Shown here one piece after another: positions 15,914 through 29,375 of a stretch of 64,000 bases of DNA. A program made the position numbers and the translations under genes. A model generated the notes under the pieces. That model searched no databases. It was not told the origin of the DNA and saw nothing but the letters and a program-made list of their open reading frames with translations. The DNA comes from Actinoallomurus spadix (lineage in GTDB: Bacteria; Actinomycetota; Actinomycetes; Streptosporangiales; Streptosporangiaceae), in contig NZ_JAMXMX010000002.1 in assembly GCF_024055725.1 (NCBI RefSeq), forward strand, positions 124,001-188,000. Reading direction: 5' to 3'. The number at the start of each line of letters is the position of its first letter. Within the stretch, counting starts at the first letter, position 1.

Positions 15914-17176
15914 ATGGGCGCGCGAACCCGGGCCGACGAGCACGACGTCGACCTCGCCGGGCTGGAGTTCTGGGCGCGCCCCGCCGAGGAGCGGCTGGCC
16001 GCCTTCGCGCGGCTGCGCTCCCGCGACCGGCCCGTGTTCTTCAAGGAGCGGCGGGTGCCGTTCGTCCGGGACGGGCGGGGTTTCTACGCGCTCGTGCGCC
16101 ACGCCGACGTCGTGCACGCTGGCCGGAACGCCAAGGTCTTCAGCAGCGAACCCGCGGCCACCTCGCCCGAGCCGCCTCCGTGGATCGTCCTGCTGTTCGG
16201 ACGGCCGATGGTCAACATGGACGATCCCCGCCACGCCCGGCTGCGGCGGATCGTCTCCCGCGCGTTCACCCCGCGCCGCCTGGCCCGCATCGACGAGCAC
16301 ATCACCGCGACGGCCCGGACGATCGTCGACGACCTCCTGGAACGCCGGTCGGGCGACTTCGTCGCCGACGTCGCCGCCCGGCTGCCCATCGCGGTGATCT
16401 GCGCGATGATGGGCATCCCGGAGCGGGACCACGCGAAGGTCGCCGCCTGCGTGGACGCGATGACGGAGTACTCCGGGGTCCGCGGCGACGTCGTACGCCT
16501 CCGCGCGCTCCGCCTCCTGGTGGGCAACCTCCGGGCCATCGTCGTGCTGCACCGCCTGGTCGCGCGCCTCGGCCGCGAGCGCCGCCGCCGGCCGGCCGAC
16601 GACCTGGTGTCGGCGCTGGTCAACGCGGACATCGACGGCGAGCGGCTCTCGGTGCGCGAGCTGGGCGCGTTCTTCGACCTGCTGCTCGTCGCCGGGAACG
16701 AGACGACGCGGAACGCGCTCGCGCACGGCCTGCGGCTGTTCACCGACCATCCGGACCAGCGGGCGCTGCTGCTGGCCGACTTCGACGGCCGGATCGGCGG
16801 GGCGGTCGAGGAGATCGTGCGGTACTCCTCCCCGATCATGCAGTTCCGGCGGACCCTGACCTGCGACTACGAGCTGAACGGGCAGTCCTTCCGCAAGGGC
16901 GACAAGGTCGTGCTCTTCTACGGATCCGCCAACCGGGACGAGACGGTGTTCGCCGATCCGGACGTCTTCGACATCACCCGGAGCCCGAACCCGCATGTCG
17001 GGTTCGGCGGCCCGGGGCCGCACCTGTGCCTCGGGGCCAACCTGGCCCGGCGGGAACTGGCCGCGATGTACCGGGAGCTGTTCACCCGGGCGCCGGGGAT
17101 CCGGGCGACCGGTGCGCCGGAGTTACTGCTGTCCGGCTTCGACAATGGCATCAAGCGTCTGCCGTACGAGATCTGA
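15914..17176 (+). CDS. Cytochrome P450 (bacterial class I type)
   Basis: A 420-residue haem monooxygenase. It shows the I-helix oxygen-binding motif (LVAGNETTRN), the K-helix EEIVR and the haem loop FGGPGPHLCLG with the thiolate ligand at Cys372. It is soluble, with no membrane anchor, and would need a ferredoxin and reductase encoded elsewhere. It lies 12 nt upstream of a membrane-anchored glycosidase, so the two are probably co-transcribed, which is an uncommon pair. The substrate cannot be read from the sequence. Confidence 0.93.
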   Translation: MGARTRADEHDVDLAGLEFWARPAEERLAAFARLRSRDRPVFFKERRVPFVRDGRGFYALVRHADVVHAGRNAKVFSSEPAATSPEPPPWIVLLFGRPMVNMDDPRHARLRRIVSRAFTPRRLARIDEHITATARTIVDDLLERRSGDFVADVAARLPIAVICAMMGIPERDHAKVAACVDAMTEYSGVRGDVVRLRALRLLVGNLRAIVVLHRLVARLGRERRRRPADDLVSALVNADIDGERLSVRELGAFFDLLLVAGNETTRNALAHGLRLFTDHPDQRALLLADFDGRIGGAVEEIVRYSSPIMQFRRTLTCDYELNGQSFRKGDKVVLFYGSANRDETVFADPDVFDITRSPNPHVGFGGPGPHLCLGANLARRELAAMYRELFTRAPGIRATGAPELLLSGFDNGIKRLPYEI

Positions 17177-17188
17177 GGCGATCCGGTC

Positions 17189-18508
17189 GTGGCCATCCGC
17201 AAGCGCCTGCCGATGCTGATCATCTGTGCCACCCTGCTGGTGGCGCTGGTCGCGACGCTCGGATTCGCGATCCAGCGCGCCTCGGAGGGCCGGGAGGCGC
17301 CGCGGACGATCGGCGTCGTGGGGGCGCGCGGCGTCGGCGACTGGCCGGTGTGGGGTTTCACCCACACGGACTACAGCGCCGACGTGGGCCCGGCCGGCGG
17401 CACCGCCGCGACCGCCATCGCCCGCCGGGCCGTGCTGCAGAACCAGCACATCATGGGCTGGGGCGCCGGCAATCCGGAGCCCGCTCCCGGGACCTTCGAC
17501 TTCCGTTCGCTCGACCGGCGGATGGCGTACATCCGCCGGACCCACGGCGTCCCCGTCATCACCCTGTGCTGCGCGCCGGACTGGATGAAGGGCGGCCGGG
17601 CGGGCCGGACGGACTGGAGCCGGCTGGAGGTGGCCCCGGCGCGGGACCACTACCGGGACTTCGCCGCGCTGGCCGCCACGGTCGCCCGCCGCTATCCGGA
17701 CGTTCGCCACTTCGCGGTGTGGAACGAGCTCAAGGGCTTCTTCGACCAGACGGCCGACCGGTGGCGGTATGAGGACTTCACCGACCTTTACAACACGGTC
17801 TACGACGCGGTGAAGGCGGTGAATCCGCGAATCCAGGTCGGCGGGCCGTACATCCCCATGTACAGCTTCGTGGGAGGCGGCCATCGGTCGGCGCTCCGGG
17901 GGCCGTGGGGGAGCGTAGACCAGCGGGTGATCGACGCCATCGACTACTGGCTGGCGCACAAGCACGGCGCCGACTTCATCGCCGTGGACGGTCCGACGGC
18001 CAGCGACGACCGGGACGTCTACCCGGACGAGGTGACCGCCCTGGGCAAGCTGGGCGCGATCGATGCCTGGCTGCGGTCGAAGACGGACCTGCCGATCTGG
18101 TGGGACGAGTACTACGTCGAGCCGCAGAGCCTTCCGTGGACCGAGGACAAGCGCGTCGCCGTCAACGCGGCGGCGCTCATCGAACTGGCCAGGACCGGCG
18201 TCTCCACGGTCCTCTATTGGAACAACGAGGCCCAGGACGCGCGCTGTCAGGGCTGTCTGTGGATCAGCACGCTCGTGGCGAACGGCGGCGCGCCGGGGGG
18301 CATGCTCACCCTCGTGCAGGACTTCGCCCGATGGTTCCCCGCCGGCACGCCGCTGATCGGCCTGTCGTCGGCCGACCGCCGGGTGCGGGTGCTCGCCCAG
18401 CCGCACCGGGTGGTCGCCGTCAACGTGAGCGATCGCCGGGTCCGCACCCGGATCGACGGACGGAGGCTCACCTTCGCTCCGTACGAGATCCGCTGGCTGG
18501 ATCGTTAG
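17189..18508 (+). CDS. Membrane-anchored TIM-barrel glycoside hydrolase (GH39-like)
   Basis: A 439-residue protein starting at GTG, with an N-terminal signal anchor (about 8-27) and no clear cleavage site. The rest resembles clan GH-A barrels. The acid/base candidate is Glu180 in VWNELKGFF, after the beta-4 strand. The nucleophile candidate is Glu307 in WWDEYYVEP. A third motif is WNNEAQDARCQGC. The small beta-rich end (RVRVLAQPHRVVAVNVSD) resembles the accessory domain of GH39 beta-xylosidases. It probably trims a surface or environmental glycan. GH39 placement is by motif only, and related GH-A families are alternatives. Confidence 0.75.
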   Translation: MAIRKRLPMLIICATLLVALVATLGFAIQRASEGREAPRTIGVVGARGVGDWPVWGFTHTDYSADVGPAGGTAATAIARRAVLQNQHIMGWGAGNPEPAPGTFDFRSLDRRMAYIRRTHGVPVITLCCAPDWMKGGRAGRTDWSRLEVAPARDHYRDFAALAATVARRYPDVRHFAVWNELKGFFDQTADRWRYEDFTDLYNTVYDAVKAVNPRIQVGGPYIPMYSFVGGGHRSALRGPWGSVDQRVIDAIDYWLAHKHGADFIAVDGPTASDDRDVYPDEVTALGKLGAIDAWLRSKTDLPIWWDEYYVEPQSLPWTEDKRVAVNAAALIELARTGVSTVLYWNNEAQDARCQGCLWISTLVANGGAPGGMLTLVQDFARWFPAGTPLIGLSSADRRVRVLAQPHRVVAVNVSDRRVRTRIDGRRLTFAPYEIRWLDR

Positions 18509-18539
18509 CGGCCCGGCGATCGTCGTTCAGGCACTCGGC

Positions 18540-18944
18540 TCAGCGCCGGAAGTGCCGGAAATGCCGGTAGTGGTACGGCCGGTAGTGGCGGTAGTGCCGG
18601 TAGTGGCGGTAGTGGCGGTAGTGGTACGGCCGGTAGTGCCGGTAATGGCGGTAGTGCCGATATCTCCCCGGCCGGTAATGGCGGTAATGGTGGTAACGGC
18701 GGTAGTGACGGTAATGCCGGCGGCGGTGATGGTCGCCCTGCACCAGGGTGACCGGCTCGCTCGTGCCTTCGGTGACGCCGGTGGGCGCCGGTGCCTCAGG
18801 GAGCGTGCGGTCCGGTGCGGTCGCCACGCGGGCAGGGGCGCCCCGGCCGAGGCCGGTCTGCGCGCCCGCGGGAGTTCCCGCGAACACCACGGCCGCGGTG
18901 GCGGCGCCGAGCAGGCCGATGACGGCGCTCTTCTTGATCAGCAC
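18540..18944 (-). CDS. Secreted His-Tyr-Arg repeat protein
   Basis: A 134-residue protein from GTG 18944, with AAGGAG 6 nt upstream. Residues 1-28 are a signal peptide ending GTPAGA. A spacer of about 40 residues follows. The last 65 residues are almost only His, Tyr and Arg, with about 13 HYR and two HFR triplets broken by PY or PGRY. The corresponding DNA is a 9-bp CGGTAGTGG-type repeat. The signal peptide resembles those of the four genes to its right, so it belongs to the same cluster. No known family is recognised. His clusters could bind metal, and alternating aromatic and basic residues could aid adhesion or phase separation; both are guesses. Confidence 0.75.
   Translation of the reverse strand: MLIKKSAVIGLLGAATAAVVFAGTPAGAQTGLGRGAPARVATAPDRTLPEAPAPTGVTEGTSEPVTLVQGDHHRRRHYRHYRRYHHYRHYRPGRYRHYRHYRHYRPYHYRHYRHYRHYRHYRPYHYRHFRHFRR
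18543..18720. repeat. 9-bp tandem repeat encoding HYR triplets
   Basis: Plus-strand units of the form CGGTAGTGG, CGGTAGTGC or CGGTAATGG recur about 18 times, interrupted by CGGTAGTGGTACGG variants that encode PYHYR. The codons differ at third positions, so selection on the protein is more likely than recent slippage alone. Confidence 0.85.
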
Positions 18945-19003
18945 ATCGAACTCCTTCTTCCGGATTTCGGATCGGCGTTACGGCGGGATGCCGGGCCTTC
19001 CGG

Positions 19004-19474
19004 TCAGTCGACGAACGCCGTGGCGTCGCCGGCGCGCGCGAACGTGCCGCGCCTGCCCACGATGGCCGTGACGCCGTCGTCGAAGCCGTCCCGGTCGAGG
19101 AACCGGCCGCGGCCGAGGAAGCCGTCACCGAGGAAGCCGTTACCGAGGAAGCCGTCACGACCGAACCGGTTGCAGCAGCCGCCGCCGCCCCAGAAGCGGT
19201 TGGGGCCGAATCCGGCGTTCCTGTTCCTGGCCACCGCGACGTTGTTGTTGCGGTTGATCACGCGGACCGGGACGATGACGCGGGTCACGTTGATGTTCCG
19301 GTTGCGGTTGTGGTTGCGTGAGATCACGCGGTGACTCGCGACGTAGCGGTGGCCCCAGCGGTGGTGGCCGTGCCAGGTGGGAGCCTGGGCCGACGCGGGC
19401 GAACCGGTGAGCAGGATGCCGGCTGTAGCGGCGGCGATGACCAGACCGCCGGCAGCGCTTGTCGTCTTCAGCAC
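19004..19474 (-). CDS. Small secreted Asn/Arg-rich protein (NRNNN family)
   Basis: A 156-residue protein. The start is GTG 19474 rather than ATG 19480, because AAGGAG sits 6 nt before the GTG, the same spacing as in the neighbouring paralogues. The signal peptide ends SPASA (about 28-29). The mature part has His/Trp-rich and Asn/Arg-rich segments (NHNRNRNINV, VINRNNNVAVARNRN). It then has a Gly/Phe-rich half with repeated GFLG-type units and a CC pair. It is a paralogue of 19715-20092, 20135-20668 and 20825-21214 by signal peptide and the NRNNN core. No known function. Confidence 0.75.
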   Translation of the reverse strand: MLKTTSAAGGLVIAAATAGILLTGSPASAQAPTWHGHHRWGHRYVASHRVISRNHNRNRNINVTRVIVPVRVINRNNNVAVARNRNAGFGPNRFWGGGGCCNRFGRDGFLGNGFLGDGFLGRGRFLDRDGFDDGVTAIVGRRGTFARAGDATAFVD

Positions 19475-19610
19475 GTTCATCTCCTTGTTGCCGGAAATGG
19501 CCCGATGGCCATGAGTGCCCGTTTTGGGCGCCATAGCCGTACTTTCCCGGCCACCCTCGTGCAGCGGCAATCTTGGAGTAACTTGCCGACAAAAGCGGCG
19601 AAGACGACAC

Positions 19611-19651
19611 CAGCCCCGGGGCGGGATTTCGTACTCCCCGCCCCGGGGCTG
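19611..19651 (-). terminator. Intrinsic terminator-like hairpin after the 19715-20092 gene
   Basis: Perfect 15-bp arms at 19611-19625 and 19637-19651 (CAGCCCCGGGGCGGG and its complement) with an 11-nt loop. In minus-strand direction it lies 64 nt after the stop of the upstream gene, and a short U-rich stretch follows further on. Confidence 0.7.
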
Positions 19652-19714
19652 AATGTTCCGTCGGCGACTCTTTACCGGCTAATCTCACGTCGTCTCAGGA
19701 AAATGGCCGGCGAA

Positions 19715-20092
19715 TCAGCGGTTCCGCTCCTGCGGCTCGGTGAGGTCCTGCCGCTGCCGCTCGTTCTGCCGCTGCCGCTCGAACTGGTTCTGCCGCTCGC
19801 TCTGCGCCTGGTCGTTCCGCGCGATGGCGACGTTGTTGTTCCGGTTCCGGATGCGGAGCCGGATGTAGTTGAACGTGCTGTGGTTGTTCGCGGTGAAGGC
19901 GTTCCAGCGGCCGCCGAGGGCGGCGAAGCCGGCACCGCCCCAGTTACCGCCACCCCAGCCGTTGCCCCAGCCGCCGAAGCCGCCGCCGCCGCCGAACTGC
20001 GGCGTGGTGGCCGACGCGGGGGAGCTGGTGAGGATCGCGCCTGCGGCGCAGGCGATCACGAGGCCCCCCAGGGTGAAGGACTTCTTCGACAT
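19715..20092 (-). CDS. Small secreted Gly/Trp- and Gln/Arg-rich protein (NRNNN family)
   Basis: A 125-residue protein from ATG 20092 with AGGAG 6 nt upstream. The signal peptide ends SSPASA (about 27). A Gly/Trp segment follows (GGFGGWGNGWGGG), then the family core IRLRIRNRNNNVAIARNDQ (about 77-95). The tail is polar and rich in Gln, Arg and Glu (QRQNERQRQD) and is likely helical or disordered. The core is nearly identical to that in 20825-21214. The composition resembles prion-like or amyloid-forming surface proteins, but no chaplin, rodlin or curlin motif is present. It starts 42 nt after the gene at 20135-20668 and may be co-transcribed with it. Confidence 0.78.
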   Translation of the reverse strand: MSKKSFTLGGLVIACAAGAILTSSPASATTPQFGGGGGFGGWGNGWGGGNWGGAGFAALGGRWNAFTANNHSTFNYIRLRIRNRNNNVAIARNDQAQSERQNQFERQRQNERQRQDLTEPQERNR

Positions 20093-20134
20093 CTCAATCT
20101 CCTGTCAGTGCTCGATCGAACGATGTGTAGGCGG

Positions 20135-20668
20135 TCAGGGTGTCTGCCACTCACTGCTTCCGGCCCCGCGCTCGGCACTCGCGCTCTGCTGCTGGGCCGG
20201 TGCGGTGCCGGAATCACGTGAGGCACCCGAATCACCGGAGACACCCGGATCACGTGTGACGCCGGATCCACCGGCGGCCTGCGGACGGACCCGTCGATAG
20301 GCCGTTCCGACCGGAGCGGTCCCGGGCGCGAGGTCGGAGCGGCGGGTCAGGCCGCCACCAGGGTCTCCCGCCCGGTCCTGCTGCCATTGCCGCTGGCGCT
20401 CCCACTGCCGCTGGCGTTCGCGTTGCGCCTGCTCGTTCCGCGCGATGGCGATGTTGTTGTTCCGGTTGTAAATGAAGATCCGGATGAAGATGCGCGGACG
20501 GTTGCTGTTGAAATTCACATGCCGGTGTCTGTGCACGAAGTGAAAGCGATGATGATTGTGCCAGTAACCGGCGAGGTCGGGTTGGGCGTTCACCGGCGAG
20601 CTTGTGAGCAAGACGCCGGCGGCGGCCGATACCACCAAGCCGAGAGAGGCGTATTTCATTGTGAGCAC
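20135..20668 (-). CDS. Small secreted Asn/Gln/Arg-rich protein (NRNNN family, long form)
   Basis: A 177-residue protein from GTG 20668 with AAGGAG 6 nt upstream. The signal peptide ends SSPVNA. Next is a His/Phe/Arg segment (HNHHRFHFVHRHRHV), then the core FIYNRNNNIAIARNEQAQ, then WERQRQWQQ repeats. The unique C-terminal 80 residues are Gly/Ser/Asp-rich (GVTRDPGVSGDSGASRDSG) and may be disordered. It is the only member with this extension. The His-rich part recalls the HYR protein at 18540-18944. The hairpin at 20697-20725 separates it from the next member upstream. Confidence 0.75.
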   Translation of the reverse strand: MLTMKYASLGLVVSAAAGVLLTSSPVNAQPDLAGYWHNHHRFHFVHRHRHVNFNSNRPRIFIRIFIYNRNNNIAIARNEQAQRERQRQWERQRQWQQDRAGDPGGGLTRRSDLAPGTAPVGTAYRRVRPQAAGGSGVTRDPGVSGDSGASRDSGTAPAQQQSASAERGAGSSEWQTP

Positions 20669-20696
20669 GCCGATCTCCTTTCGTCGTCGGGGATAA

Positions 20697-20725
20697 GGGT
20701 GCCGGGGAGGTCCTCTCCGGCACCC
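20697..20725 (-). terminator. Hairpin between two secreted-protein genes
   Basis: GGGTGCCGG and CCGGCACCC arms (20697-20705 and 20717-20725), extended inward by GAG/CTC pairing with one wobble. It lies about 100 nt after the stop of the 20825-21214 gene and just before the ribosome site of the next, so it may terminate or attenuate read-through. Confidence 0.6.
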
Positions 20726-20824
20726 TTTCCTGACCGGACGGCACGGCGGCCGTCACCGCATGGTTCTTCGAGCCGTCGCCGGGCTTCGCCGGCTGCTACC
20801 GCCCTGGGTCAGACTCCGCTGGAC

Positions 20825-21214
20825 TCACTGGCCAGGAGCGCCGACCTCGGCGTCGCCCCGGCGGTCGCGCCGGTCGCGGTCCTGGTCGACGAGGTCCTGC
20901 CGCTCGCGCTGCCGCTGCCGCTCCAGCTGCCACTGGTTCTCACGCTGGGCCTGCGCCTGGTCGTTGCGAGCGATGGCGACGTTGTTGTTGCGGTTCCGGA
21001 TGCGCAGCCGGATGTAGTTCCACACGGAGTTACCGTTGAAGTTCAGGTTGCGGTGGTTCGAGAAGTGGCGGAAGTTCTGGCCCGAGAACCAGCCGCCGCC
21101 GTAGCCACCGCCCCAGCCCGGACCAGGCTGGGCATTGGCCGGTGCAGCGGTGAGGATCGCACCCGCGGCGGTGGCGATCACCAGGCCACCCATGGCGAAC
21201 TTCTTCTTCAGCAC
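20825..21214 (-). CDS. Small secreted Asn/Gln/Arg-rich protein (NRNNN family)
   Basis: A 129-residue protein from GTG 21214, with AAGGAG 6 nt upstream; the earlier ATG at 21253 is rejected. The signal peptide ends APANA (about 28). A Gly/Tyr/Trp patch follows (GWGGGYGGGWFSG), then an Asn/His patch and the core IRLRIRNRNNNVAIARNDQ. A Gln/Glu/Arg tail (ERQRQRERQD) and an acidic-basic end (DQDRDRRDRRGD) complete it. It is the closest relative of 19715-20092 and the first gene of the cluster in transcription order. An AT-rich leader lies upstream. Function unknown. Confidence 0.78.
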   Translation of the reverse strand: MLKKKFAMGGLVIATAAGAILTAAPANAQPGPGWGGGYGGGWFSGQNFRHFSNHRNLNFNGNSVWNYIRLRIRNRNNNVAIARNDQAQAQRENQWQLERQRQRERQDLVDQDRDRRDRRGDAEVGAPGQ

Positions 21215-21546
21215 GTCGGTCTCCTTATCTCGGAATGGCGCGATGGCCTTCACGAAACGGCGCTGCCCTCCTGTTTCGGGTGGACGCCGTTGTTTGTAAC
21301 ATTCCCACGCCCTTTCTCGGCAAGATAACTACAGGGTAAGATGACAATAAAGAGCGAAATTCTAAAACCGGACTTTTCGGCTCGTTCTCCGATCTGTCCC
21401 ATCATTGTTCGCGGAATGGGCGGGACGACCCTCTGAGCTGTTTCCGATCTTGTTCTGGAGTCCGCCCCGGACGGTGTGTCACCGCGTGCGCGAGGCTCCC
21501 GCGGCACTAGGTTCGACGCGCGGCGCGTGCGCCCTGGCCGTCCTGC
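21215..21546. other. 332-nt AT-richer region upstream of the secreted-protein cluster
   Basis: No gene is supported. 21285-21420 is the most AT-rich stretch nearby and probably holds the promoter of the minus-strand secreted-protein gene at 20825-21214. A minus-strand TTGCCG...TTACAA arrangement is a weak promoter candidate. The right end is the 3' side of the membrane-protein gene at 21547. No clear terminator was found there. Confidence 0.45.
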
Positions 21547-21957
21547 TCAGCGGTCGAAGGCCCAGGACTCGTCGTCGTCGTCCAGCCCTGTTTCCGCCAA
21601 CGACCGCAATTCCGGCGAATTGTCGTTTCTGTGCCGGCCGAGGGCCGGCGCGCCGATGAGCGCGCAAACGGCGGCGACGGCGATGAGCCCGCCCCGCGGC
21701 GACCAGACCGAGCACACCAGCATGACCTCGGCGACCGCACCGTTCACGACGACCGCGCCGATGCCCGCGACGACGAGCCGGGCCGCCCGGTCGAGGCGGG
21801 CGAGCAACCCCGCCAGGCAGAACGCCGGCGTGCCGAGGGCCAGCGCCGCGGCCACCGGCCGGGTGAAGCCGGGCACGGAGGGCAGGAGCGCCAGGGTGAC
21901 CAGGCCCGCGAGGAGGACGACGCCGACCGCACCCACGAGCACCCGCCGCCCCGCCAT
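21547..21957 (-). CDS. Small four-helix membrane protein at end of polysaccharide operon
   Basis: A 136-residue protein with four hydrophobic segments (about 6-24, 29-50, 55-78 and 82-103) and a short acidic cytoplasmic tail (LAETGLDDDDESWAFD). Its ATG overlaps the stop of the large flippase gene by one base (TGATG), so it is translationally coupled. No family is recognised. Position suggests an accessory subunit of the export machinery. Confidence 0.75.
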   Translation of the reverse strand: MAGRRVLVGAVGVVLLAGLVTLALLPSVPGFTRPVAAALALGTPAFCLAGLLARLDRAARLVVAGIGAVVVNGAVAEVMLVCSVWSPRGGLIAVAAVCALIGAPALGRHRNDNSPELRSLAETGLDDDDESWAFDR

Positions 21958-24900
21958 CAGGACCCCAACGCCACGAAGCGCTCGGCGACGGTGATCGCCA
22001 GAACGACGAGCAGCACGGCGGCCCCCCAGGTGAACGGCCGCAACCGCGACCCCGCCCCGGACGGCGCGTACAGCCGCACGACCTCCCGCGCGAGCAGAAG
22101 GACGATCAGCAGCGGCAGCGCGGCCAGCCCCACCGGCGTCCAGGCGGTCGAGCCGAACGTGAAGCGCGCCGTGCGGGCCGGAGGAGGCGGCGTCCCCGCC
22201 GCCGGGGCCCGCAGCGCGTAGACGACGGCGTCGCCGCCCGTGAAGACCGGGCGGAGCTGCGGCGCGGCGGCCAGCGCCGCCCGCAGCCGTCCGGCGTACG
22301 AGGCGGGCAGGCCGTAGTTGAAACGGTTGTACGCCTCGTTCGCGCGACCGGTGATGAAGTACCCGCCGGGCCGCTCCCGGAGCGCCGCGACGATCCCGGA
22401 CAGGTCGGCCGGATTCGCCGGGGCACGGACGGCGGTGTAGTCGAACCGCTCCATCGACCGGGCACCCCACGGCATCATCGGGAAGTACCCCGCGTCGTCC
22501 TGCGGGTCGGCCTGCCACACCACGTTGATCACGCCGGTCGGGGTCTGGCGCAGCATCGCCTCGAACGCCTTCACCTCGCCGGGACGCACCTGCTCGAACG
22601 TCTCATTGCCGAAGCGGACGAACAGGAAGCCCCCCGCCAGCAGCAGCCCGCACAGCGCCGCGCCACCGACCGCGAGAGTACGGCGCGGCGCGGGGAACGT
22701 GGTCGGGAAGAAGGCGTACGCCGCGAGGAGACAGGCGCCCGGAAGGACGAAGAAGTACACCCGCAGCGCGATCTCGCCCCCGTAGTTCTGCAGGCCCGCC
22801 GCGAGGAACGGCGCGGCCAGCAGGACGAGCGCGACCCGGTCGTCCAGGCGCCGCAGCCGCCGCCGCACCGCCCCGTACACCGCCAGCAGCACGGTCACCG
22901 CGGCGATGAGGATCCGCACCGACTGCACCGTCTCCAGGCTCTCGCTGCCGTTGCTCACCCGGCCCGCGACCCCGCCGGTCAGGTTCGACAGCAACGCGCC
23001 CGCGCCGGAGAACAGGTCCCCGATGTGACCCGCCCAGTACCCCGTCGCCATGAAGCCGATCCAGCCGGCGACCATCACCGCGAGCAGGACCGGCAGGCCA
23101 CGCGCCGTACAGCGCCGGACCACCACGAGCCCCGTGCAGGTGAACAGGATCAGGAACGGGGTGAGCTGGTGGCTCGCCGTCGTCACCGCGAAGACCACCA
23201 CGAGCAGCACGACCAGGATCGCGCGGGTGCCGGCCGGAACGTCGACGGGCGGCCGCTCCCCGGCGGCCAGCGGCCCGCGGACGAACGCCCGCACCCGGCC
23301 CGGCACGGCACGCCACGCGGCGGGCCGCACCGGCGGGCGGAACCAGTTCAGCAGCACGCCGACGAACAGCAGGTAGAGGAGATAGGTGAAGCCCTGCGGG
23401 CTGAAGTAGTCCTGGCCGACCCAGTCCACCACCACGAACAGCCACGCGGCCAGCCAGCACGCGCGCCAGTTCGCGCGCATGGTCCGCAGGATGAGGTACA
23501 GCGGCCCCAGGTAGAGCAGCTGCGCGGCGACCGGCGCCCAGTGCAGGAGGGGCTCCAGGTCGCGCAGGCCACCCACCCGGGTCACGAAGGCGACGAGCGC
23601 GAAGAACCCCGGCCAGCTGAACCTCGCGTCCAGCGCGTAGTCCGCCGCCCCGGTCCGCCGGATGTACTCCACGAACCCGTAGTGCTGCCAGGCCGTCTCC
23701 GGCCGGGCGTACGGCTCCAGGGCCGGAGCCAGGCCGTGCAGCGCGACGACGATGGCGACGAGCTGCAGCAGCAGGAGCACCCGGCGCTGCCGGCTCAGCC
23801 ACAGCGTGCCGAAGAACGCGGCGACCAGCAGGCCGGCGCCCGCGAGGGTGGCGACCGGCAGCACCGAGATCAGGCCGTACCCGTTCATCCGGGCGAGGCG
23901 CACGTGCCGGAGCGGCAGCCAGTACAGGCCCAGCCCGGCGGCGAACAATACCCACAGCGGCCAGGCGGCCCGCGCCTTCCCGCGCGGCCGGCGCGGCCGG
24001 CGCCCGACGGCCCGCCGCACGGAGCCGGCGCCCGCCACGTCCTCCCGCGCCACGCCGGGCGCCGCCTCGTGCGCAGCGTCAGGTGCCGCATCGGGCACCG
24101 CCTCAGGCACCGCGTCGGGTGCCGTCTTGGGCGCGGCCACCGAGGTGGCCGGGCGGATCACCCGGAGCACGGACGGGAGGACGGCGACGGCGAGCGCGGC
24201 GGTGACCGCGAGCACGGCGTACCCGGGGCCGGTCGCGTGCGCGCCGCCGGGCAGCAGGAGCACGAGCCCGAGCACGCCGGCGAACCGCGTGCCCTGCAGC
24301 AGCGCCACCAGCCGGGTGCGCCGCCGCACCCGCAGGACGCCGATGTACACCTCGATCAGCGCCTTGGGCAGGACGGCGAGGGCGAGCAGCCGCAGCAGCG
24401 GCGCGCCGTGCCGGGCGTACCCGGGGCCGAAGACCGACAGGCCGAGCCGCGCGCCGAGCAGGAGGGCGACGGTGGTGGGCAGCAGGATGAGCGTCATCCG
24501 GACGAGCGCCGAACGGCAGGCGGCGGCGAGGCCGTGCGCGTCGAACGCGCCCTCGACCGTCAGCGACGTCGCCATGTTGACGGCCAGCACGTCGACGGTC
24601 GCGCCGAGCACCCACGCCAGGTAGAAGTAGGCGTTCGTGCGGGCGTCCAGGCGGGCGGCGACGACGACCGGCACCAGGTTGCACAGGGCGTAGTAGAAGA
24701 GCGTGCCGGTGTAGTCGCCGACGACGTACCGGCCGATCTCCGCGCCGGTCGGGACGGGCCGGTCGCCGGCGGTGGCGGCGACGTGACGGGGGATGAGCCG
24801 CTGGTGGACGATCCCCTCGACCGGGATGAGGAGGAGCAGCGCCGCCAGCACCCAGGAGATGGCGATCCCGTCCTCCGGGAGGGCCCCCGCCAGGGTCACC

Positions 24901-25397
24901 AGCAGCACGATCTTCAGGCCGGCGAACAGGGTGTTCTTGCCGAGCACGCCCGTGGCGTGCCGCAGCCCGGTGAGCACCCCGTCCTGGGCGGTGAACAGGC
25001 TCCACGAGACGACGGAGACGACGAAGAAGACCCCGGCGCCGAGGCCGGACAGGTGCGCGAACGACGGCCCCCACCAGCCGAGCGTGAGCAGGAACCCGGC
25101 GGCGAGGGTGGCGGCGGCCGTGATGCCCGCGAGGTAGGTTCGCAGCACGAGCCGGCTCGTGCCGCGTCCCATCTCGGGGACGAACCGGATGAGGATGAAG
25201 TTCAGCGCCGTCAGCCCGCCGAGGAACATCATGGCCTGGTTCTGCGCGGACTGCCGGCCGACCTCGGCGGGCGGGTAGAACCGGGCGGCCAGGAGCCAGT
25301 AGCCGAGCCCGAGCACGCCGGTGAGCCCGCCGTTGATCATTAAGGCGTACGCGTTGCGGAACAGCGGGTTGGACAGCTCGCTCCGCAGGGCCGCCAT
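21957..25397 (-). CDS. Polysaccharide flippase fused to a multi-spanning membrane module
   Basis: A 1146-residue protein. Residues 1-430 resemble Wzx/MOP-type flippases, with about 12 helices and a start (ELSNPLFRNAYALMINGG) typical of actinobacterial members. Residues about 430-490 are an Ala/Pro/Asp linker of (A/V)PDA-like units and a basic RRPRRPRGKAR patch. Residues 490-1146 contain a further 12 or so helices with large extracytoplasmic loops, resembling polymerase or GT-C-like proteins. The ATG at 25397 has GGAG close by, and longer in-frame extensions lack support. The fusion would couple lipid-linked unit export with a later step. Which enzyme the second half represents is uncertain. 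Confidence 0.78.
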   Translation of the reverse strand: MAALRSELSNPLFRNAYALMINGGLTGVLGLGYWLLAARFYPPAEVGRQSAQNQAMMFLGGLTALNFILIRFVPEMGRGTSRLVLRTYLAGITAAATLAAGFLLTLGWWGPSFAHLSGLGAGVFFVVSVVSWSLFTAQDGVLTGLRHATGVLGKNTLFAGLKIVLLVTLAGALPEDGIAISWVLAALLLLIPVEGIVHQRLIPRHVAATAGDRPVPTGAEIGRYVVGDYTGTLFYYALCNLVPVVVAARLDARTNAYFYLAWVLGATVDVLAVNMATSLTVEGAFDAHGLAAACRSALVRMTLILLPTTVALLLGARLGLSVFGPGYARHGAPLLRLLALAVLPKALIEVYIGVLRVRRRTRLVALLQGTRFAGVLGLVLLLPGGAHATGPGYAVLAVTAALAVAVLPSVLRVIRPATSVAAPKTAPDAVPEAVPDAAPDAAHEAAPGVAREDVAGAGSVRRAVGRRPRRPRGKARAAWPLWVLFAAGLGLYWLPLRHVRLARMNGYGLISVLPVATLAGAGLLVAAFFGTLWLSRQRRVLLLLQLVAIVVALHGLAPALEPYARPETAWQHYGFVEYIRRTGAADYALDARFSWPGFFALVAFVTRVGGLRDLEPLLHWAPVAAQLLYLGPLYLILRTMRANWRACWLAAWLFVVVDWVGQDYFSPQGFTYLLYLLFVGVLLNWFRPPVRPAAWRAVPGRVRAFVRGPLAAGERPPVDVPAGTRAILVVLLVVVFAVTTASHQLTPFLILFTCTGLVVVRRCTARGLPVLLAVMVAGWIGFMATGYWAGHIGDLFSGAGALLSNLTGGVAGRVSNGSESLETVQSVRILIAAVTVLLAVYGAVRRRLRRLDDRVALVLLAAPFLAAGLQNYGGEIALRVYFFVLPGACLLAAYAFFPTTFPAPRRTLAVGGAALCGLLLAGGFLFVRFGNETFEQVRPGEVKAFEAMLRQTPTGVINVVWQADPQDDAGYFPMMPWGARSMERFDYTAVRAPANPADLSGIVAALRERPGGYFITGRANEAYNRFNYGLPASYAGRLRAALAAAPQLRPVFTGGDAVVYALRAPAAGTPPPPARTARFTFGSTAWTPVGLAALPLLIVLLLAREVVRLYAPSGAGSRLRPFTWGAAVLLVVLAITVAERFVALGS

Positions 25398-25447
25398 GGG
25401 CTCCAGTGTCGCCCCTTCCTCCGTTCGCGCAAGTGCCCTGGAGCGCG

Positions 25448-26221
25448 TCACACGGTTCCTCGGAGGCGTCGTACGGCGTACCGGGACCGGCGCACGACCG
25501 CGTACCCCTTGGTCAGCGCGTGGTCGAGGAGGAAGCCGCGGCCGCGCAGCGCCCGCTCGAACGCGGCGAGCGACGTGCCCGCCCGTACGGTCACCCGGGG
25601 CACGGCGAGCCGGTCGCCGTCCCCGGCCGCCAGGGTGTTCGCGACCGCGCACGCCGCGTCGTACCCCGCCGCCCGCGTCTCGCGGCGCACCCGCGCGCTG
25701 GAGTACCCGTAGGGGTAGGCCATCGTCGTCACGGGGCGGCCGACCCGGTCTTCCAGGAGCCGCCTGCTGCGCAGCAGCTCCGTGCGCAGCACCGCGTCGC
25801 GGAGCTGGTCGAGCTGGGCGTGGCTGTGGCCGTGCCCGCCGACCTCGATCCCGCAGGCCGCGATCTCCGCGACCTGGCTCCAGCTGAGCGTCGGCCCGAG
25901 CGGCCGCCCGGCGGCGTACGGCCCGGCGTCGCGGATCCACCCGGTGGTGACGAAGACCGTCGCGCGGAAGCCGAACCTGTCCAGCAGTGGCAGCGCCCGC
26001 TCATGGAAGTCGGCGTACCCGTCATCGAACGTGATCACCACCGGCCGGCCCTTCACCGGGTCGCCCGCCGCCAGCTCACCGAAGGTGATCGGCGTGAAGC
26101 CGCAGTCCCGCAGGAGGGCGAGCTGCTCGGCGAACGCCTCCGGGCGGACGGCGAGCCGGTCTGGCCCGCCGATGGAGTGGTACATCAGGATCGGGACGGG
26201 AGCGGTCGGGGCGTCACCCAT
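25448..26221 (-). CDS. Polysaccharide deacetylase (CE4/NodB type)
   Basis: A 257-residue metal-dependent deacetylase acting on N-acetylated sugars. It carries the NodB motifs TFDDGYAD (Asp66-Asp67), GGHGHSHAQL with zinc-ligand His130 and His134, and AYPYG near 160. No signal peptide is seen, so it may act on cytoplasmic or lipid-linked intermediates. ATG 26221 overlaps the preceding GT2 gene by 8 nt. A deacetylase in a polysaccharide operon suggests that the product contains a hexosamine with free amino groups. Confidence 0.88.
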   Translation of the reverse strand: MGDAPTAPVPILMYHSIGGPDRLAVRPEAFAEQLALLRDCGFTPITFGELAAGDPVKGRPVVITFDDGYADFHERALPLLDRFGFRATVFVTTGWIRDAGPYAAGRPLGPTLSWSQVAEIAACGIEVGGHGHSHAQLDQLRDAVLRTELLRSRRLLEDRVGRPVTTMAYPYGYSSARVRRETRAAGYDAACAVANTLAAGDGDRLAVPRVTVRAGTSLAAFERALRGRGFLLDHALTKGYAVVRRSRYAVRRLRGTV

Positions 26222-27161
26222 GAGACCTCCGGAGGGAGCCGGCGGGATACCCGGGGAGCCGTAGGGAACCGGCGGCGTACCCGGACATCGTGAAGGCGAG
26301 CCCCGCCAGGATCGCCCCCGCGCGCCCCAGCCCCGCCGGGTCGCCGGTGCACGCGGCGCGCAGCCCGCGCCCGACGCCGCGCGGCAGTTCGACGAGCGCG
26401 TGCCGGCGTTCGCTGGCCAGCCCGTCCCCGACTCCCACGCTCCGGGTGACCATCGCCTTCGACAGCCCCTCGGCGTAGCAGCGGGTCCGGAAGTACGCGA
26501 AGCGCGCGCGTTCACCGGGCACGCGGTGCCAGATCACGGCGCGGTCGTCGAACAGCAGCACCGTCTCCGGCACGGCTTGGCGCAGCCGGATGCAGAACTC
26601 CGTCTCCTCACAGCCCAGCGGCCGTTTGCCCGGGGCGCGCCCGATACCGCTGCGGAAACCCCCGGCTACCTCGAACGCCGCCCGCCGGAACGAGGCGTTG
26701 CCGCCCATGAGGTTCCGGATCGGGCCGGCGGCCATCCCGAGGTACGTGCAGCCGACCACCCACGCGAACTCCTCGGGGAACCAGCGGGGCGCGTCGGACG
26801 GCCAGAGCGGCAGTGTACGGCCGCCGACGCCGGCGACATCCGGGTCGGCGTACCCGGCGGCCAGCACGGACAGCCAGTCGGCGTGGGCGACCGCGTCGTC
26901 GTCGAGGAACGCGACCACCTCGCCGCGCGCCGCCGCTACGCCGGTGTTCTTGCCGCCGGACAGGCCCTGCGGCCCGGTGTTCGGCATCACCCGGACGTCC
27001 GGCAGCGCGGCCCGCAGGCGTTCCAGCAGCGCCTCGTTGTGGTCGACGACGAGGATGATCTCGTGCGGCGCGAGCCGCTGTGCCCGTACGGACGCGACCG
27101 CGGCCAGGACGTCGTCCCAGCGCCGCTCGGTGTACGCGCAGATGACCACGGAGATCTTCAC
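26214..27161 (-). CDS. Family 2 glycosyltransferase
   Basis: A 315-residue GT2 enzyme from GTG 27161, in a GTGA overlap with the upstream gene. The GT-A fold starts directly (KISVVICAYTERRWDDVLAAV). The nucleotide/metal motif is FLDDDA (about 92-97), and GCEETEFCIRLR (near 185) matches the ED acceptor-site motif. The end carries a weak hydrophobic segment (AGAILAGLAFTMSGYAAG). It probably adds one sugar to a lipid-linked unit on the cytoplasmic side of the membrane. Confidence 0.87.
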   Translation of the reverse strand: MKISVVICAYTERRWDDVLAAVASVRAQRLAPHEIILVVDHNEALLERLRAALPDVRVMPNTGPQGLSGGKNTGVAAARGEVVAFLDDDAVAHADWLSVLAAGYADPDVAGVGGRTLPLWPSDAPRWFPEEFAWVVGCTYLGMAAGPIRNLMGGNASFRRAAFEVAGGFRSGIGRAPGKRPLGCEETEFCIRLRQAVPETVLLFDDRAVIWHRVPGERARFAYFRTRCYAEGLSKAMVTRSVGVGDGLASERRHALVELPRGVGRGLRAACTGDPAGLGRAGAILAGLAFTMSGYAAGSLRLPGYPAGSLRRSHG

Positions 27162-28417
27162 GCCGCGTTCCCCTTCCCGTCCGGGGCGTGCCCGGCCGTC
27201 TTCTGCCCGGGTGCGACGGACCCGCCCGCGACGGACCCGCCCGCGACGGACCCGCCCGCGAGGGACCCGGGTGCGACGGACCCGGATGCGAGGGGCCCGG
27301 ATGCGAGGGACCCGGGTGCGACGGGTCCGGGTGCGACGGGCACGGCCGCGCGGCCCTTCGCCCGCAGCCGGGCGTACGTCCGCAGCACCCGGTCCGCGCC
27401 CGCGTACAGCGCCGGGTGGGCCAGCACGGCGCTGCGCGCCCGGCGTACCGGCGCCGCGCGGACCCAGTGCAGCCCGGCGGCGGCCGACACCCGGGCGACC
27501 CGGCCCTCGGCGATCCCGAACTCGGCGTTCCTCAGCCAGTCCTTGTACTCCCGGCCGCCCCGCCCCATGGCGATCCAGCCGACCCCGGCGCCGGCCGCCG
27601 CCTCCGCCATCCGAAGGTGTCCGATCATGCCGGGGGAGTACCGCCCGAACTCGATGTCGTACGCGGGGAACCAGCCCGCCATGACCGGGCCCGCCCGCAG
27701 CCCCAGATGCGCGGAGACCGGACGACCCCCGGCGCGCAGCACGCTGAGCACCCCGGCGCCCGTCGCGTGCAGGTGCTCGACGAGCGCCACGATCCAGGGC
27801 ACGGCGAACCGGTCGGTGCGGCCGGTCCGGCGGTACTGCGCGGACTTCCACGCCATCAGCCGCCGCAGCTCCGCAGGGTCCCGCTCGTCGAACGTGTAGG
27901 TCACCTCCCCGGCCTCACGGCCGAGCTTGCGCTCCTTGTACCGGACGGTCTTCAGCGTCTTCGGTGACCGCTTCCGGGCCTCCTCCGCGTACGCGGCGAA
28001 CCCCGCGCGCAGGTCCATCACCGGCTCGACGCGCGTCTCGGCGTGGAACGGCGCGAACACCGCCTGGTCGGCCAGGAGATGGTCGAACTCCCACACCGAC
28101 AGGCGGCAGGCGCGCAGCAGCGCCCGCACGTCGAACTCCAGGTCCGGCGGGCCGACGAGACCCTGGCAGTCGGTCAGCCCGGCGCCGATCGGGCGGCCCA
28201 GCCCGAGCCCGTGCCGTTCGTACGGGAAGAAGCCCACGATGCCGGTGCCGTCGCTCAGCACGGTCACCCGGGCGTCGGCCCGGAACCGGCCCACGGCCAA
28301 CGTGAACTCCGGCGCGAGGAATGGATTGCCGGGGACCGGGCCGGTGCCCTGGAGCGCGCGCCAGCGCGCCAGCTCCGGCTCCCCGAGCTCATCCGGGCGC
28401 ACGATGTCGAACCTCAC
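27158..28417 (-). CDS. FemAB/CelD-like GNAT acyltransferase
   Basis: A 419-residue protein from GTG 28417 that overlaps the upstream gene by GTGA. Residues about 150-330 match the Acetyltransf_6 (CelD/BioF2-like) fold, with RYKERKLGRE, GWFPAYDIEFGRYSPGMIGHLRM and a late WIAMGRGGREYKDWLRN segment. This family occurs with cellulose and exopolysaccharide loci. The last 50 residues are a Gly/Ser/Ala/Pro repeat of five-residue units (GSVAG, GSLAS). An acyl or aminoacyl transfer to the sugar unit is likely, but the donor is unknown. Confidence 0.82.
   Translation of the reverse strand: MRFDIVRPDELGEPELARWRALQGTGPVPGNPFLAPEFTLAVGRFRADARVTVLSDGTGIVGFFPYERHGLGLGRPIGAGLTDCQGLVGPPDLEFDVRALLRACRLSVWEFDHLLADQAVFAPFHAETRVEPVMDLRAGFAAYAEEARKRSPKTLKTVRYKERKLGREAGEVTYTFDERDPAELRRLMAWKSAQYRRTGRTDRFAVPWIVALVEHLHATGAGVLSVLRAGGRPVSAHLGLRAGPVMAGWFPAYDIEFGRYSPGMIGHLRMAEAAAGAGVGWIAMGRGGREYKDWLRNAEFGIAEGRVARVSAAAGLHWVRAAPVRRARSAVLAHPALYAGADRVLRTYARLRAKGRAAVPVAPGPVAPGSLASGPLASGSVAPGSLAGGSVAGGSVAGGSVAPGQKTAGHAPDGKGNAA
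27207..27345 (-). repeat. 15-bp repeats encoding a GSVAG-like tail
   Basis: About nine in-frame 15-bp units (GCGACGGACCCGCCC and variants on the plus strand) encode the five-residue repeats at the C-terminus of the CelD-like protein. Several adjacent units are identical, which suggests recent expansion. Confidence 0.8.
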
Positions 28418-29268
28418 CCGGAGGCCTCCTCCAGGACCTGTTCCAACGCCGTGCGTTCGCGGGCGGCGCGCTCCGGCGCGGGGGTGGCCCGCAGCCGCGG
28501 CCGTGCCCCGCCGACGGGTCCCCGCCGGCCCCGGACCATCGTTCGCAGCACTCGCAGGCCGTCCCGGCCGGCGTTCAGCTTCGAGACGCCCGACCGGCGG
28601 TCGAGCTCATGGCTGGGCAGCTCGGCGATGCGCAGCCCCGTGGTGACCGCGTTGACGCACAGCTCCGTCTCGATCTCGAACCCGTCGGCGGCGAGGTTCA
28701 GCCGGTCCACGACGGAGCGACGTAGCGCGATGTATCCGTAGCACAGGTCGGTCCAGCGCACGCGGTACAGCACGTTGGCGAGCCTGGTCAGTAAGAGGTT
28801 CCCGGCCCGCCGCAGCCACGTGAGGTCGTCGGACCCGCCCCCGACGCAGTAGCGGGACCCCTTCACGACGTCGAACCCGCAGCAGATCAACGCGACGAAC
28901 GCGTCGATCTCCCTCGGGTCCATGCTGCCGTCGGCGTCGATGGCGACGATGACGTCACTGGTGGCGGCCTCGAACCCGGCCCGCATCGCCGCGCCCTTCC
29001 CGGTGGGCGGCCGGCTGATGACGACGGCGTCCGGCCGCAGCCGCCGCGCGACGTCGGCGGTGCCGTCCGCGGACTCGCCGTCGACGACGACGACCTCGTC
29101 CACCCCGGAGAGACGGGGCAGCAGCCATCGCAGGTTCTCGGCTTCGTTGAGGGTGGGGATGACGGCCGTGACGGTCGGCCGGGTCGCGCGGTGACGCGCG
29201 ACGTCGAGATGCTGCAGGAGCGCGCCGGATCGTGCGCCGGCGCCGTGGAGGAATTCCGGCTCGTGCAT
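28414..29268 (-). CDS. Family 2 glycosyltransferase (polyprenol-phosphate sugar synthase-like)
   Basis: A 284-residue GT2 enzyme resembling dolichyl-phosphate mannose/glucose synthases. Motifs are TAVIPTLNEAENLRWLL, the nucleotide-binding DEVVVVDGESADGT and the metal site AIDADGSMDPREI. A C-terminal FEIETELCVNAV segment follows. There are no membrane helices. ATG 29268 is preceded by GGGGGCACC; the upstream ATG at 29337 is less likely. It is the first gene of the six-gene operon running down to 21547, so it may make the polyprenyl-linked starter. Confidence 0.86.
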   Translation of the reverse strand: MHEPEFLHGAGARSGALLQHLDVARHRATRPTVTAVIPTLNEAENLRWLLPRLSGVDEVVVVDGESADGTADVARRLRPDAVVISRPPTGKGAAMRAGFEAATSDVIVAIDADGSMDPREIDAFVALICCGFDVVKGSRYCVGGGSDDLTWLRRAGNLLLTRLANVLYRVRWTDLCYGYIALRRSVVDRLNLAADGFEIETELCVNAVTTGLRIAELPSHELDRRSGVSKLNAGRDGLRVLRTMVRGRRGPVGGARPRLRATPAPERAARERTALEQVLEEASG

Positions 29269-29375
29269 GGTGGTGCCCCCGGTTAGGCAGGGGAGACTCG
29301 GAGGGAACGAGATCCTGCCGAGGTCGATTGACACCATCGATCGTCGGCCGGATGGCGGGAAAAACCCTCCCCCGC

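What the first reader, a model, noticed from the sequence alone, without database searches (positions are those of the whole stretch)
18540..21214. Tandem cluster of five small secreted low-complexity proteins with a conserved NRNNN core
Five adjacent minus-strand genes encode proteins of 125-177 residues. All have near-identical signal peptides (LGGLVIA...AAGAILTSSPASA-like) and the same AAGGAG-6nt-start layout. Four share the core NRNNN(V/I)A(I/V)ARN; the tails then diverge into Gly/Trp, Gln/Arg or Gly/Ser/Asp-rich sequence. The N/Q-rich, disorder-prone composition resembles functional amyloid or surface-coat proteins. They lack the chaplin, rodlin and curlin motifs that I know. I recognise no named family. 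Neighbouring polysaccharide loci support a cell-surface role.
Basis: partly seen in the sequence, partly recalled or inferred. Interest (0 to 1): 0.85.

Follow-up and report, generated by a model that had tools for sequence, protein, structure and literature searches.

The report
Secreted NRN proteins with leader RNA
A soil bacterium carries a row of small, arginine- and asparagine-rich exported proteins, probably building blocks of its outer surface, that belong to an apparently undescribed family multiplied in its genus, many of whose genes share a control sequence and a folded RNA leader that our searches found only in front of this family.

Summary
Confirmed. Five real minus-strand genes (A-E) encode small secreted proteins; A-D share NRNNN(V/I)A(V/I)AR, E does not. 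The genus is Actinoallomurus. All 8 genomes held carry 6-12 family matches. No Pfam, NCBIfam, PDB or Rfam family fits; chaplin membership was tested and not met, and chaplins are separately present in 8 of 8 genomes. Mature A-E are strongly basic and lysine-free. A conserved ~35-residue N/R module is followed by fast-changing tails; two relatives in A. iriomotensis carry collagen stalks.

New here: many members have a conserved upstream block (TTAC 29 nt before GGGAA in 42 of 44) and a ~92-nt leader with partial covariation support. In the genus, 29 of 29 promoter-pattern hits and 36 of 36 leader hits lie before family genes; the leader recurs before relatives in a second genus.

Best reading: dedicated, co-regulated extracellular structural proteins whose shared module assembles on or attaches to the surface. 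Amyloid is untested; AlphaFold gave no confident core fold. The polysaccharide operon stands without these genes in 12 other genera.

The parts
20825..21214 (-). gene A, NRN protein (129 aa; signal peptide about 1-28; Q/R/E-rich tail, helical in the AlphaFold model)
20135..20668 (-). gene B, NRN protein (177 aa; core FIRIFIYNRNNNIAIARN; G/S/D-rich tail)
19715..20092 (-). gene C, NRN protein (125 aa; Gly/Trp-rich before the core, Q/R-rich tail)
19004..19474 (-). gene D, NRN protein (156 aa; CC pair and G/D/F-rich tail)
18540..18944 (-). gene E, secreted H/Y/R-rich protein without the NRNNN core; counterpart in G001 (aligned) and an H/R/F-rich positional counterpart in G007
21302..21351 (-). promoter-like block before A: TTTATTGTCATCTTACC, 28 nt, GGGAA; this exact pattern was found before family genes only
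21215..21306 (-). structured 5' leader of A: closing stem GGAAU/AUUCC, hairpin H1 GGCG../..CGCC, hairpin H2 (weakly paired in this copy), then Shine-Dalgarno
19475..19548 (-). shorter variant of the leader before D (E 0.025 in the window), with TTAC at the same 29-nt distance
21957..25487 (-). large membrane protein of the polysaccharide operon next to the cluster (no Pfam or NCBIfam match; flippase/polymerase-like is my reading, from recall)
25448..29337 (-). rest of the polysaccharide operon: deacetylase, GT2, GNAT (Acetyltransf_6), GT2
16055..18508 (+). cytochrome P450 (16055-17176) and GH39-like protein (17189-18508, just under the Pfam cut-off), other border of the cluster

Best explanation
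A-D are members of a lineage-specific family of exported structural proteins ('NRN proteins'). Each is exported by its signal peptide (inferred from sequence), leaving a mature, basic protein made of a conserved ~35-residue Asn/Arg module and a variable tail. The module is the constant, anchoring part: it self-associates or binds an acidic surface polymer (inferred), so that a mixture of paralogues with different tails (Q/R coils, G/D-rich, collagen stalks) builds an extracellular layer or matrix (inferred). Copies arise by tandem duplication (inferred). Many members, singly or as heads of short runs such as A-B-C (inferred), share a promoter-like block and a probably structured mRNA leader (both shown by comparison), which suggests a regulator or sigma factor serving this family and a post-transcriptional step such as mRNA stabilisation or translation control (inferred).
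For: Signal peptide plus conserved module plus diverging tails: (invariant columns in 35 proteins: N46, N48, N50, A52, A54 of mature A). 8 of 8 genomes with 6-12 matches each. Mature A-E pI 11.2-11.8 and no lysine. Two relatives in G003 fuse signal + module to collagen repeats (PF01391, E 1e-13 and 2.5e-23). Control region: TTAC 28-30 nt before GGGAA in 44 of 44 leaders (42 exactly 29); pattern 29 of 29 before family genes, reversed-pattern control 0; leader model 36 of 36 in the genus; 6 of 6 in a second genus, one of which correctly announced a gene cut by a contig end; none in the 12 chaplin loci and 2 polysaccharide loci among the 25 loci. Leader structure: 89.3% of cells paired, covariation score 0.258 against 0.218 in shuffles (0 of 500 reach it) and at most 0.135 when slid; with the second genus 0.256 against 0.225 (4 of 500 reach it).
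Against: No experiment on expression, export, location or assembly is known to me. AlphaFold gives no confident fold for the module (mean pLDDT 62 and 54; low-confidence helix, no strand). Hydrophobic alternation in the core is not above shuffles. Gene C shows dN about equal to dS. B, C and E have no such leader of their own; of the 64 family matches in the genus that one search listed (of 68) only 41 have the leader or the exact promoter pattern. The covariation excess over shuffles is small, the number of pairs with changes on both sides is not above shuffles (209 of 500; 89 of 500), the structure was drawn from these sequences, and they are related. The leader searches scored at most 150 or 12 candidates a genome, so weaker copies elsewhere could be missed.
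Confidence: 0.5

Rival explanations
1. Functional amyloid coat: the module forms cross-beta fibrils (Asn at every second position of one strand), working like chaplins but made of N/R-rich strands. (A special form of the best explanation.)
For: Invariant N-x-N-x-N-x-A-x-A spacing in 35 proteins; N/Q/G-rich composition; tandem paralogues with one shared module.
Against: No strand in either AlphaFold model (single chains only); alternation test not above shuffles; no sequence homology to chaplins (score 9.3, 5 of 60 column shuffles score higher).
Confidence: 0.25
2. Polycation glue: the Lys-free, Arg-rich proteins bind an anionic exopolysaccharide or wall polymer, perhaps the product of the neighbouring operon, and stiffen the matrix by charge rather than by folding. 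(Overlaps with the best explanation.)
For: pI 11.2-11.8 of all five window proteins; cluster beside the polysaccharide operon in 8 of 8 genomes; no predicted fold of the module.
Against: The operon stands without NRN genes in 17 of 17 regions of 12 other genera; second-genus relatives lie elsewhere (L051-L053); some members are hardly basic (lowest pI 6.7).
Confidence: 0.3
3. Precursor peptides (RiPP or secreted antimicrobial): the conserved NRNNN stretch is a recognition or product core, modified for example by the neighbouring P450.
For: P450 at the main locus and P450-like genes near several minor loci; small cationic products; paralogue arrays.
Against: The main-locus P450 occurs without NRN genes in 11 of 17 regions of other genera; signal peptides, mid-protein position of the conserved module, long tails and collagen fusions do not look like RiPP precursors (recalled knowledge); no other maturase-like family among the ten neighbours scanned.
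Confidence: 0.07
4. Metal binding or sequestration by His- and Cys-rich members.
For: CC pair in 17 of 35 mature proteins, His 5.4%; H/Y/R-rich E.
Against: 18 of 35 have no Cys; the conserved part is N/R/A, not ligands.
Confidence: 0.07

Closest known systems
Chaplins (ChpA-C, PF03777) of Streptomyces and relatives
   Same: Small secreted paralogous proteins of mycelial actinomycetes with one short conserved module; three short Actinoallomurus chaplins printed have a similar signal peptide (by eye).
   Different: No PF03777 match, no conserved pair of spaced cysteines, charged instead of hydrophobic, no profile homology; chaplins coexist in 8 of 8 genomes.
BclA-type collagen-like exosporium proteins
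   Same: N-terminal module followed by a collagen-like region and a C-terminal part, in the two G003 fusions; domain order as in the review PMC8968730 (passages read).
   Different: Signal-peptide export, a different N-terminal sequence (not compared by tool), and no collagen in the window proteins.
TasA/eps-type matrix protein beside exopolysaccharide genes (recalled)
   Same: Secreted matrix-type protein genes beside exopolysaccharide genes.
   Different: No Pfam match of any kind; in related genera the polysaccharide operon stands without these genes.
Structured 5' leaders in Rfam
   Same: Leader with conserved stems upstream of a Shine-Dalgarno.
   Different: No Rfam family reaches its threshold in 18400-21700 (one hit, E 0.041, 22.7 of 49 bits, elsewhere in the cluster).

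Membership tests
Chaplins | Match to Pfam ChpA-C domain PF03777 | tested here: not met
   No match in 5 window proteins at E up to 1 nor in 35 members at E up to 0.01
Chaplins | Two conserved cysteines (stated for all but ChpE in PMC5618241, passage read) | tested here: not met
   18 of 35 mature proteins have no Cys; 17 have two, as a CC pair
Chaplins | Profile homology of the core | tested here: not met
   hhalign score 9.3, P 0.16; 5 of 60 column-shuffled chaplin profiles score higher (7 chaplin fragments)
Chaplins | Amyloid assembly at an interface | not testable with these tools
   needs purified protein
Rodlins and curlins | Match to their Pfam models, if held in Pfam-A (their presence recalled, not checked) | tested here: inconclusive
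   No such family appears in the Pfam scans; no separate comparison was made
BclA-type collagen-like proteins | Collagen repeat (PF01391) after an N-terminal attachment module | tested here: inconclusive
   Collagen repeat met by two relatives in G003, not by any window protein; attachment not testable
Known cis-regulatory RNA (Rfam 15) | Match at or above gathering score | tested here: not met

The most novel reading that the evidence does not exclude
Actinoallomurus and a second genus of its family run a self-contained surface-coat system beside their chaplins: N/R-rich module proteins with interchangeable tails, under a dedicated promoter and a new structured leader RNA that acts as a switch, perhaps responding to pH or to the export or assembly state of the coat, in a genus that grows best near pH 5.
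Probability: 0.2. Interest if true: 0.85.

Novelty: new variant of a known kind. Interest (0 to 1): 0.6.

Why it matters
Actinomycete surface coats are known mainly from Streptomyces chaplins and rodlins (recalled). A second, unrelated set of secreted module-plus-tail proteins, present in every genome held of a genus that also has chaplins, with collagen-stalk variants, would be an independent solution to building an outer layer and a source of lysine-poor, possibly self-assembling protein modules. The shared promoter block and leader RNA are directly testable and point to a candidate regulon before any expression data.

Tried and rejected
Leader peptide: the reading MRAIAPFR* in the leaders was rejected because the GTG start is not conserved and the changes (GCG to GTG, GGG, GCA) are not codon-like (read by eye).

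Alternative small hairpin GGC-AUCG-GCC in the leader: no covariation (0 pairs with changes on both sides, score 0.019 against 0.023 shuffled).

Chaplin ancestry: not supported. DUF3011 (best E 0.0095 in one of 35 members) and other weak Pfam matches: below cut-off. Sigma-70 promoter scan of 18300-21700: none found, so the block is not a sigma-70 consensus promoter.

Weak HMM matches in other genera (118 of 341 genomes matched at E 1e-3): one search read 20 loci (17 of them from other genera) and two chaplin loci. Several match mainly through the signal peptide or are chaplins (L059, L060, L066). Only the two g36 genomes give strong full-length matches; other small secreted N/R/H-rich proteins (g34, g35, g55, g65; G188 has RIRIRIRNRNNNVAVNRN) remain possible distant members. 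In a spread of 394 genomes of the class only the own genome and three of the same family matched at E 1e-5, the three over model positions 1-53 at most.

My filter for small secreted N/H/G-rich proteins is leaky: run on the window it finds only 2 of the 4 NRN genes. The absence in other genera therefore rests on the HMM: best E 0.06 in L121-L137, against 50 frames at E 1e-5 or better in eight Actinoallomurus main-locus stretches.

One leader-model hit in a third genus (G216, E 0.005, 337 genomes searched) has no NRN gene among the ORFs listed beside it and is taken as chance.

Literature: searches listed no paper describing the family; I saw listings, plus passages of PMC5618241, PMC8968730 and PMC6739405; a term search in PMC6023020 found no passage. 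Subscription papers are not held.
Full report
What is there. The window holds five adjacent minus-strand genes, A 20825-21214, B 20135-20668, C 19715-20092, D 19004-19474, E 18540-18944. A-D have a signal peptide of one type, the core NRNNN(V/I)A(V/I)AR and unlike tails. E has its own signal peptide, no core, and an H/Y/R-rich tail. Gaps of 156, 42, 240 and 59 nt separate them; leaders before A and D suggest two runs, A-B-C and D-E (inference). All five have intact counterparts in the same order in G001; dN/dS is 0.093/0.271, 0.089/0.459, 0.163/0.152, 0.069/0.201 and 0.135/0.423 for A-E, against 0.052/0.186 for the neighbouring GH39-like gene. The module of A has no nonsynonymous difference; indels of whole codons lie in the middle parts and tails.

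Where it lives. With a single query 8 of 41 genomes matched, exactly the 8 of the window's genus. With the alignment A1, these 8 (in the order) have 6, 12, 11, 7, 6, 7, 9 and 10 matches. Outside, the two g36 genomes have strong full-length relatives with VRNNNFN. Weaker matches in other genera are a mixture of signal-peptide matches, chaplins and possible distant members. In a spread of 394 genomes of the class, 4 matched at E 1e-5: the own genome and three of the same family, those three over model positions 1-53 at most.

What the proteins look like. In 35 mature proteins the invariant columns are N46, N48, N50, A52, A54 of A, every second residue. Composition is R 13.4%, N 11.9%, G 11.9%, A 9.0%; the five window proteins have pI 11.2-11.8 and no lysine (signal peptides cut by eye); 21 of 35 are lysine-free; 17 have a CC pair and 18 no Cys; pI over the 35 runs from 6.7 to 11.8. 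No Pfam, NCBIfam or PDB family fits. Two proteins in G003 (A. iriomotensis by contig) put signal peptide and module before collagen repeats. AlphaFold of mature A gave mean pLDDT 62, a confident helix only in the Q/R tail and no strand; the minimal 57-residue member gave 54 and a low-confidence helix. Bulk hydrophobic alternation in the core is not above shuffles. Amyloid is therefore neither shown nor excluded.

Chaplins. PF03777 is found in 8 of 8 genomes of the genus, at other places. The module does not match PF03777, and a profile comparison puts IRLRIRNRNNNVAI on the chaplin strand ISIPVNVCGNSVAV at score 9.3, which 5 of 60 column shuffles exceed. So NRN proteins may work like chaplins but cannot be filed as chaplins.

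Control region. Upstream sequences of many members share a block and a leader. In 44 of 44 leaders examined the TTAC nearest to the expected place lies 28-30 nt before the GGGAA of the leader, 42 of them at exactly 29. These 44 are 39 of the 59 upstream regions, chosen because GGGAA stood in the right range, plus 5 of the second genus; the other 20 of the 59, including those of B, C and E, were left out. The geometry CTTACC - 17 nt - six bases - 5 nt - GGG fits a promoter with transcription starting at the leader (inference). As a pattern (TTTNT N6 CTTACY N28 GGGAA) it occurs 29 times in the 8 genomes, the reversed control 0 times, and 29 of 29 lie before family genes.

Leader RNA. Thirty-one long leaders (A2) fit a closing stem GGAAU/AUUCC around two hairpins, H1 with GC/AU exchanges and H2 with mostly GNRA-type loops (loops read by eye). 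Of 505 cells 89.3% pair; the covariation score 0.258 exceeds all 500 shuffles (mean 0.218) and slid versions (at most 0.135), but the number of pairs with changes on both sides (5) does not exceed shuffles (209 of 500 reach it). An alignment of 20 of these 31, one further Actinoallomurus leader and 5 of the second genus (A4; a sixth, cut by a contig end, was left out) gives 0.256 against 0.225, 4 of 500 shuffles reaching it. The structure was proposed on these sequences, and they are related, so I call it probable, not proved. A model built from A2 finds 36 places in the 8 genomes at E 0.1, five of them not in A2, and 36 of 36 precede family genes. In 25 other loci it finds 6, all before relatives in g36, and one of these announced a gene cut by a contig end whose 17 visible codons read as the family's signal peptide. 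The 12 chaplin loci among the 25 have none. Across 337 genomes of the family, 11 have a hit: 8 Actinoallomurus, 2 of g36 and one isolated hit of E 0.005 without an NRN gene. These searches scored at most 150 and 12 candidates a genome. Of the 64 family matches listed for the genus (of 68), 41 have leader or exact pattern. Rfam has no match at threshold.

Neighbourhood. One side is a polysaccharide operon: GT2, GNAT, GT2, deacetylase and a large membrane protein that I read as flippase/polymerase-like although no family matched it. The other side is a P450 and a GH39-like protein. The membrane-protein gene is the neighbour in 8 of 8 genomes (in G006 with one other gene between) and the P450 in 7 of 7 whose contig reaches it, in G003 with other genes in between. 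The acetyltransferase occurs in 155 of 337 genomes of the family at E 1e-50. I took 17 regions from 12 other genera, chosen by that match: the deacetylase is present in 17 (in L132 at only 37% identity), the membrane protein in 16, GH39 in 15, P450 in 11. The family HMM finds nothing there better than E 0.06, against 50 frames at E 1e-5 in eight Actinoallomurus stretches; my first filter also found none but sees only half of the NRN genes of the window. A gene listing of the slot in 10 of the 17 showed no such gene. So the cluster was most likely gained within an older locus. Minor NRN loci lie elsewhere in the genomes (L029, L031, L035, L039, L041, L063).

How it most likely works. Shown by comparison: real genes, shared control block and leader, constant module, variable tails, collagen fusions. 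Inferred: export, surface or matrix location, assembly or polymer binding by the module, a dedicated regulator, and a role of the leader in mRNA stability or translation. Members of the genus grow best near pH 5 (passage in PMC6739405), which makes a pH-tuned coat worth testing. I give 0.5 to an extracellular structural role through the shared module, with amyloid (0.25) and charge-driven polymer binding (0.3) as overlapping forms of it.

Verdict. An apparently undescribed protein family with its own control cassette; ordinary in general kind (secreted structural proteins), unusual in how closely promoter block and leader keep to the family.

Noticed in passing
L035:10553-11551 and L035:6931-8067 (G003, A. 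iriomotensis by contig): NRN-type signal and module fused to collagen-like GPT/GAT repeats; both proteins end in ...SQLW.
   Followed up: partly
L067:4259-5080 (G188, genus g4): A frame with a small secreted-type protein carrying RIRIRIRNRNNNVAVNRN outside Actinoallomurus, a possible distant member or a convergent case.
   Followed up: no
window 18540-18944: Gene E ends in tandem R-H-Y repeats (Tyr 16%, His 17%, Arg 24% of the mature protein) and has no NRNNN core; the positional counterpart in G007 is H/R/F-rich.
   Followed up: partly
L029, L031, L041, L039: A minor NRN locus lies near a P450-like gene and a short conserved protein in three species; in L039 a P450-like gene also borders an NRN frame.
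   Followed up: no
L059, L060 (genus g58): Chaplin next to a second small protein with the same type of signal peptide and a chaplin-like CGNSNAVLG motif.
   Followed up: no
G000:C70:357740-358321: One open frame of 525 codons with four chaplin-domain matches in the window's genome; similar multi-chaplin frames in other species of the genus.
   Followed up: no
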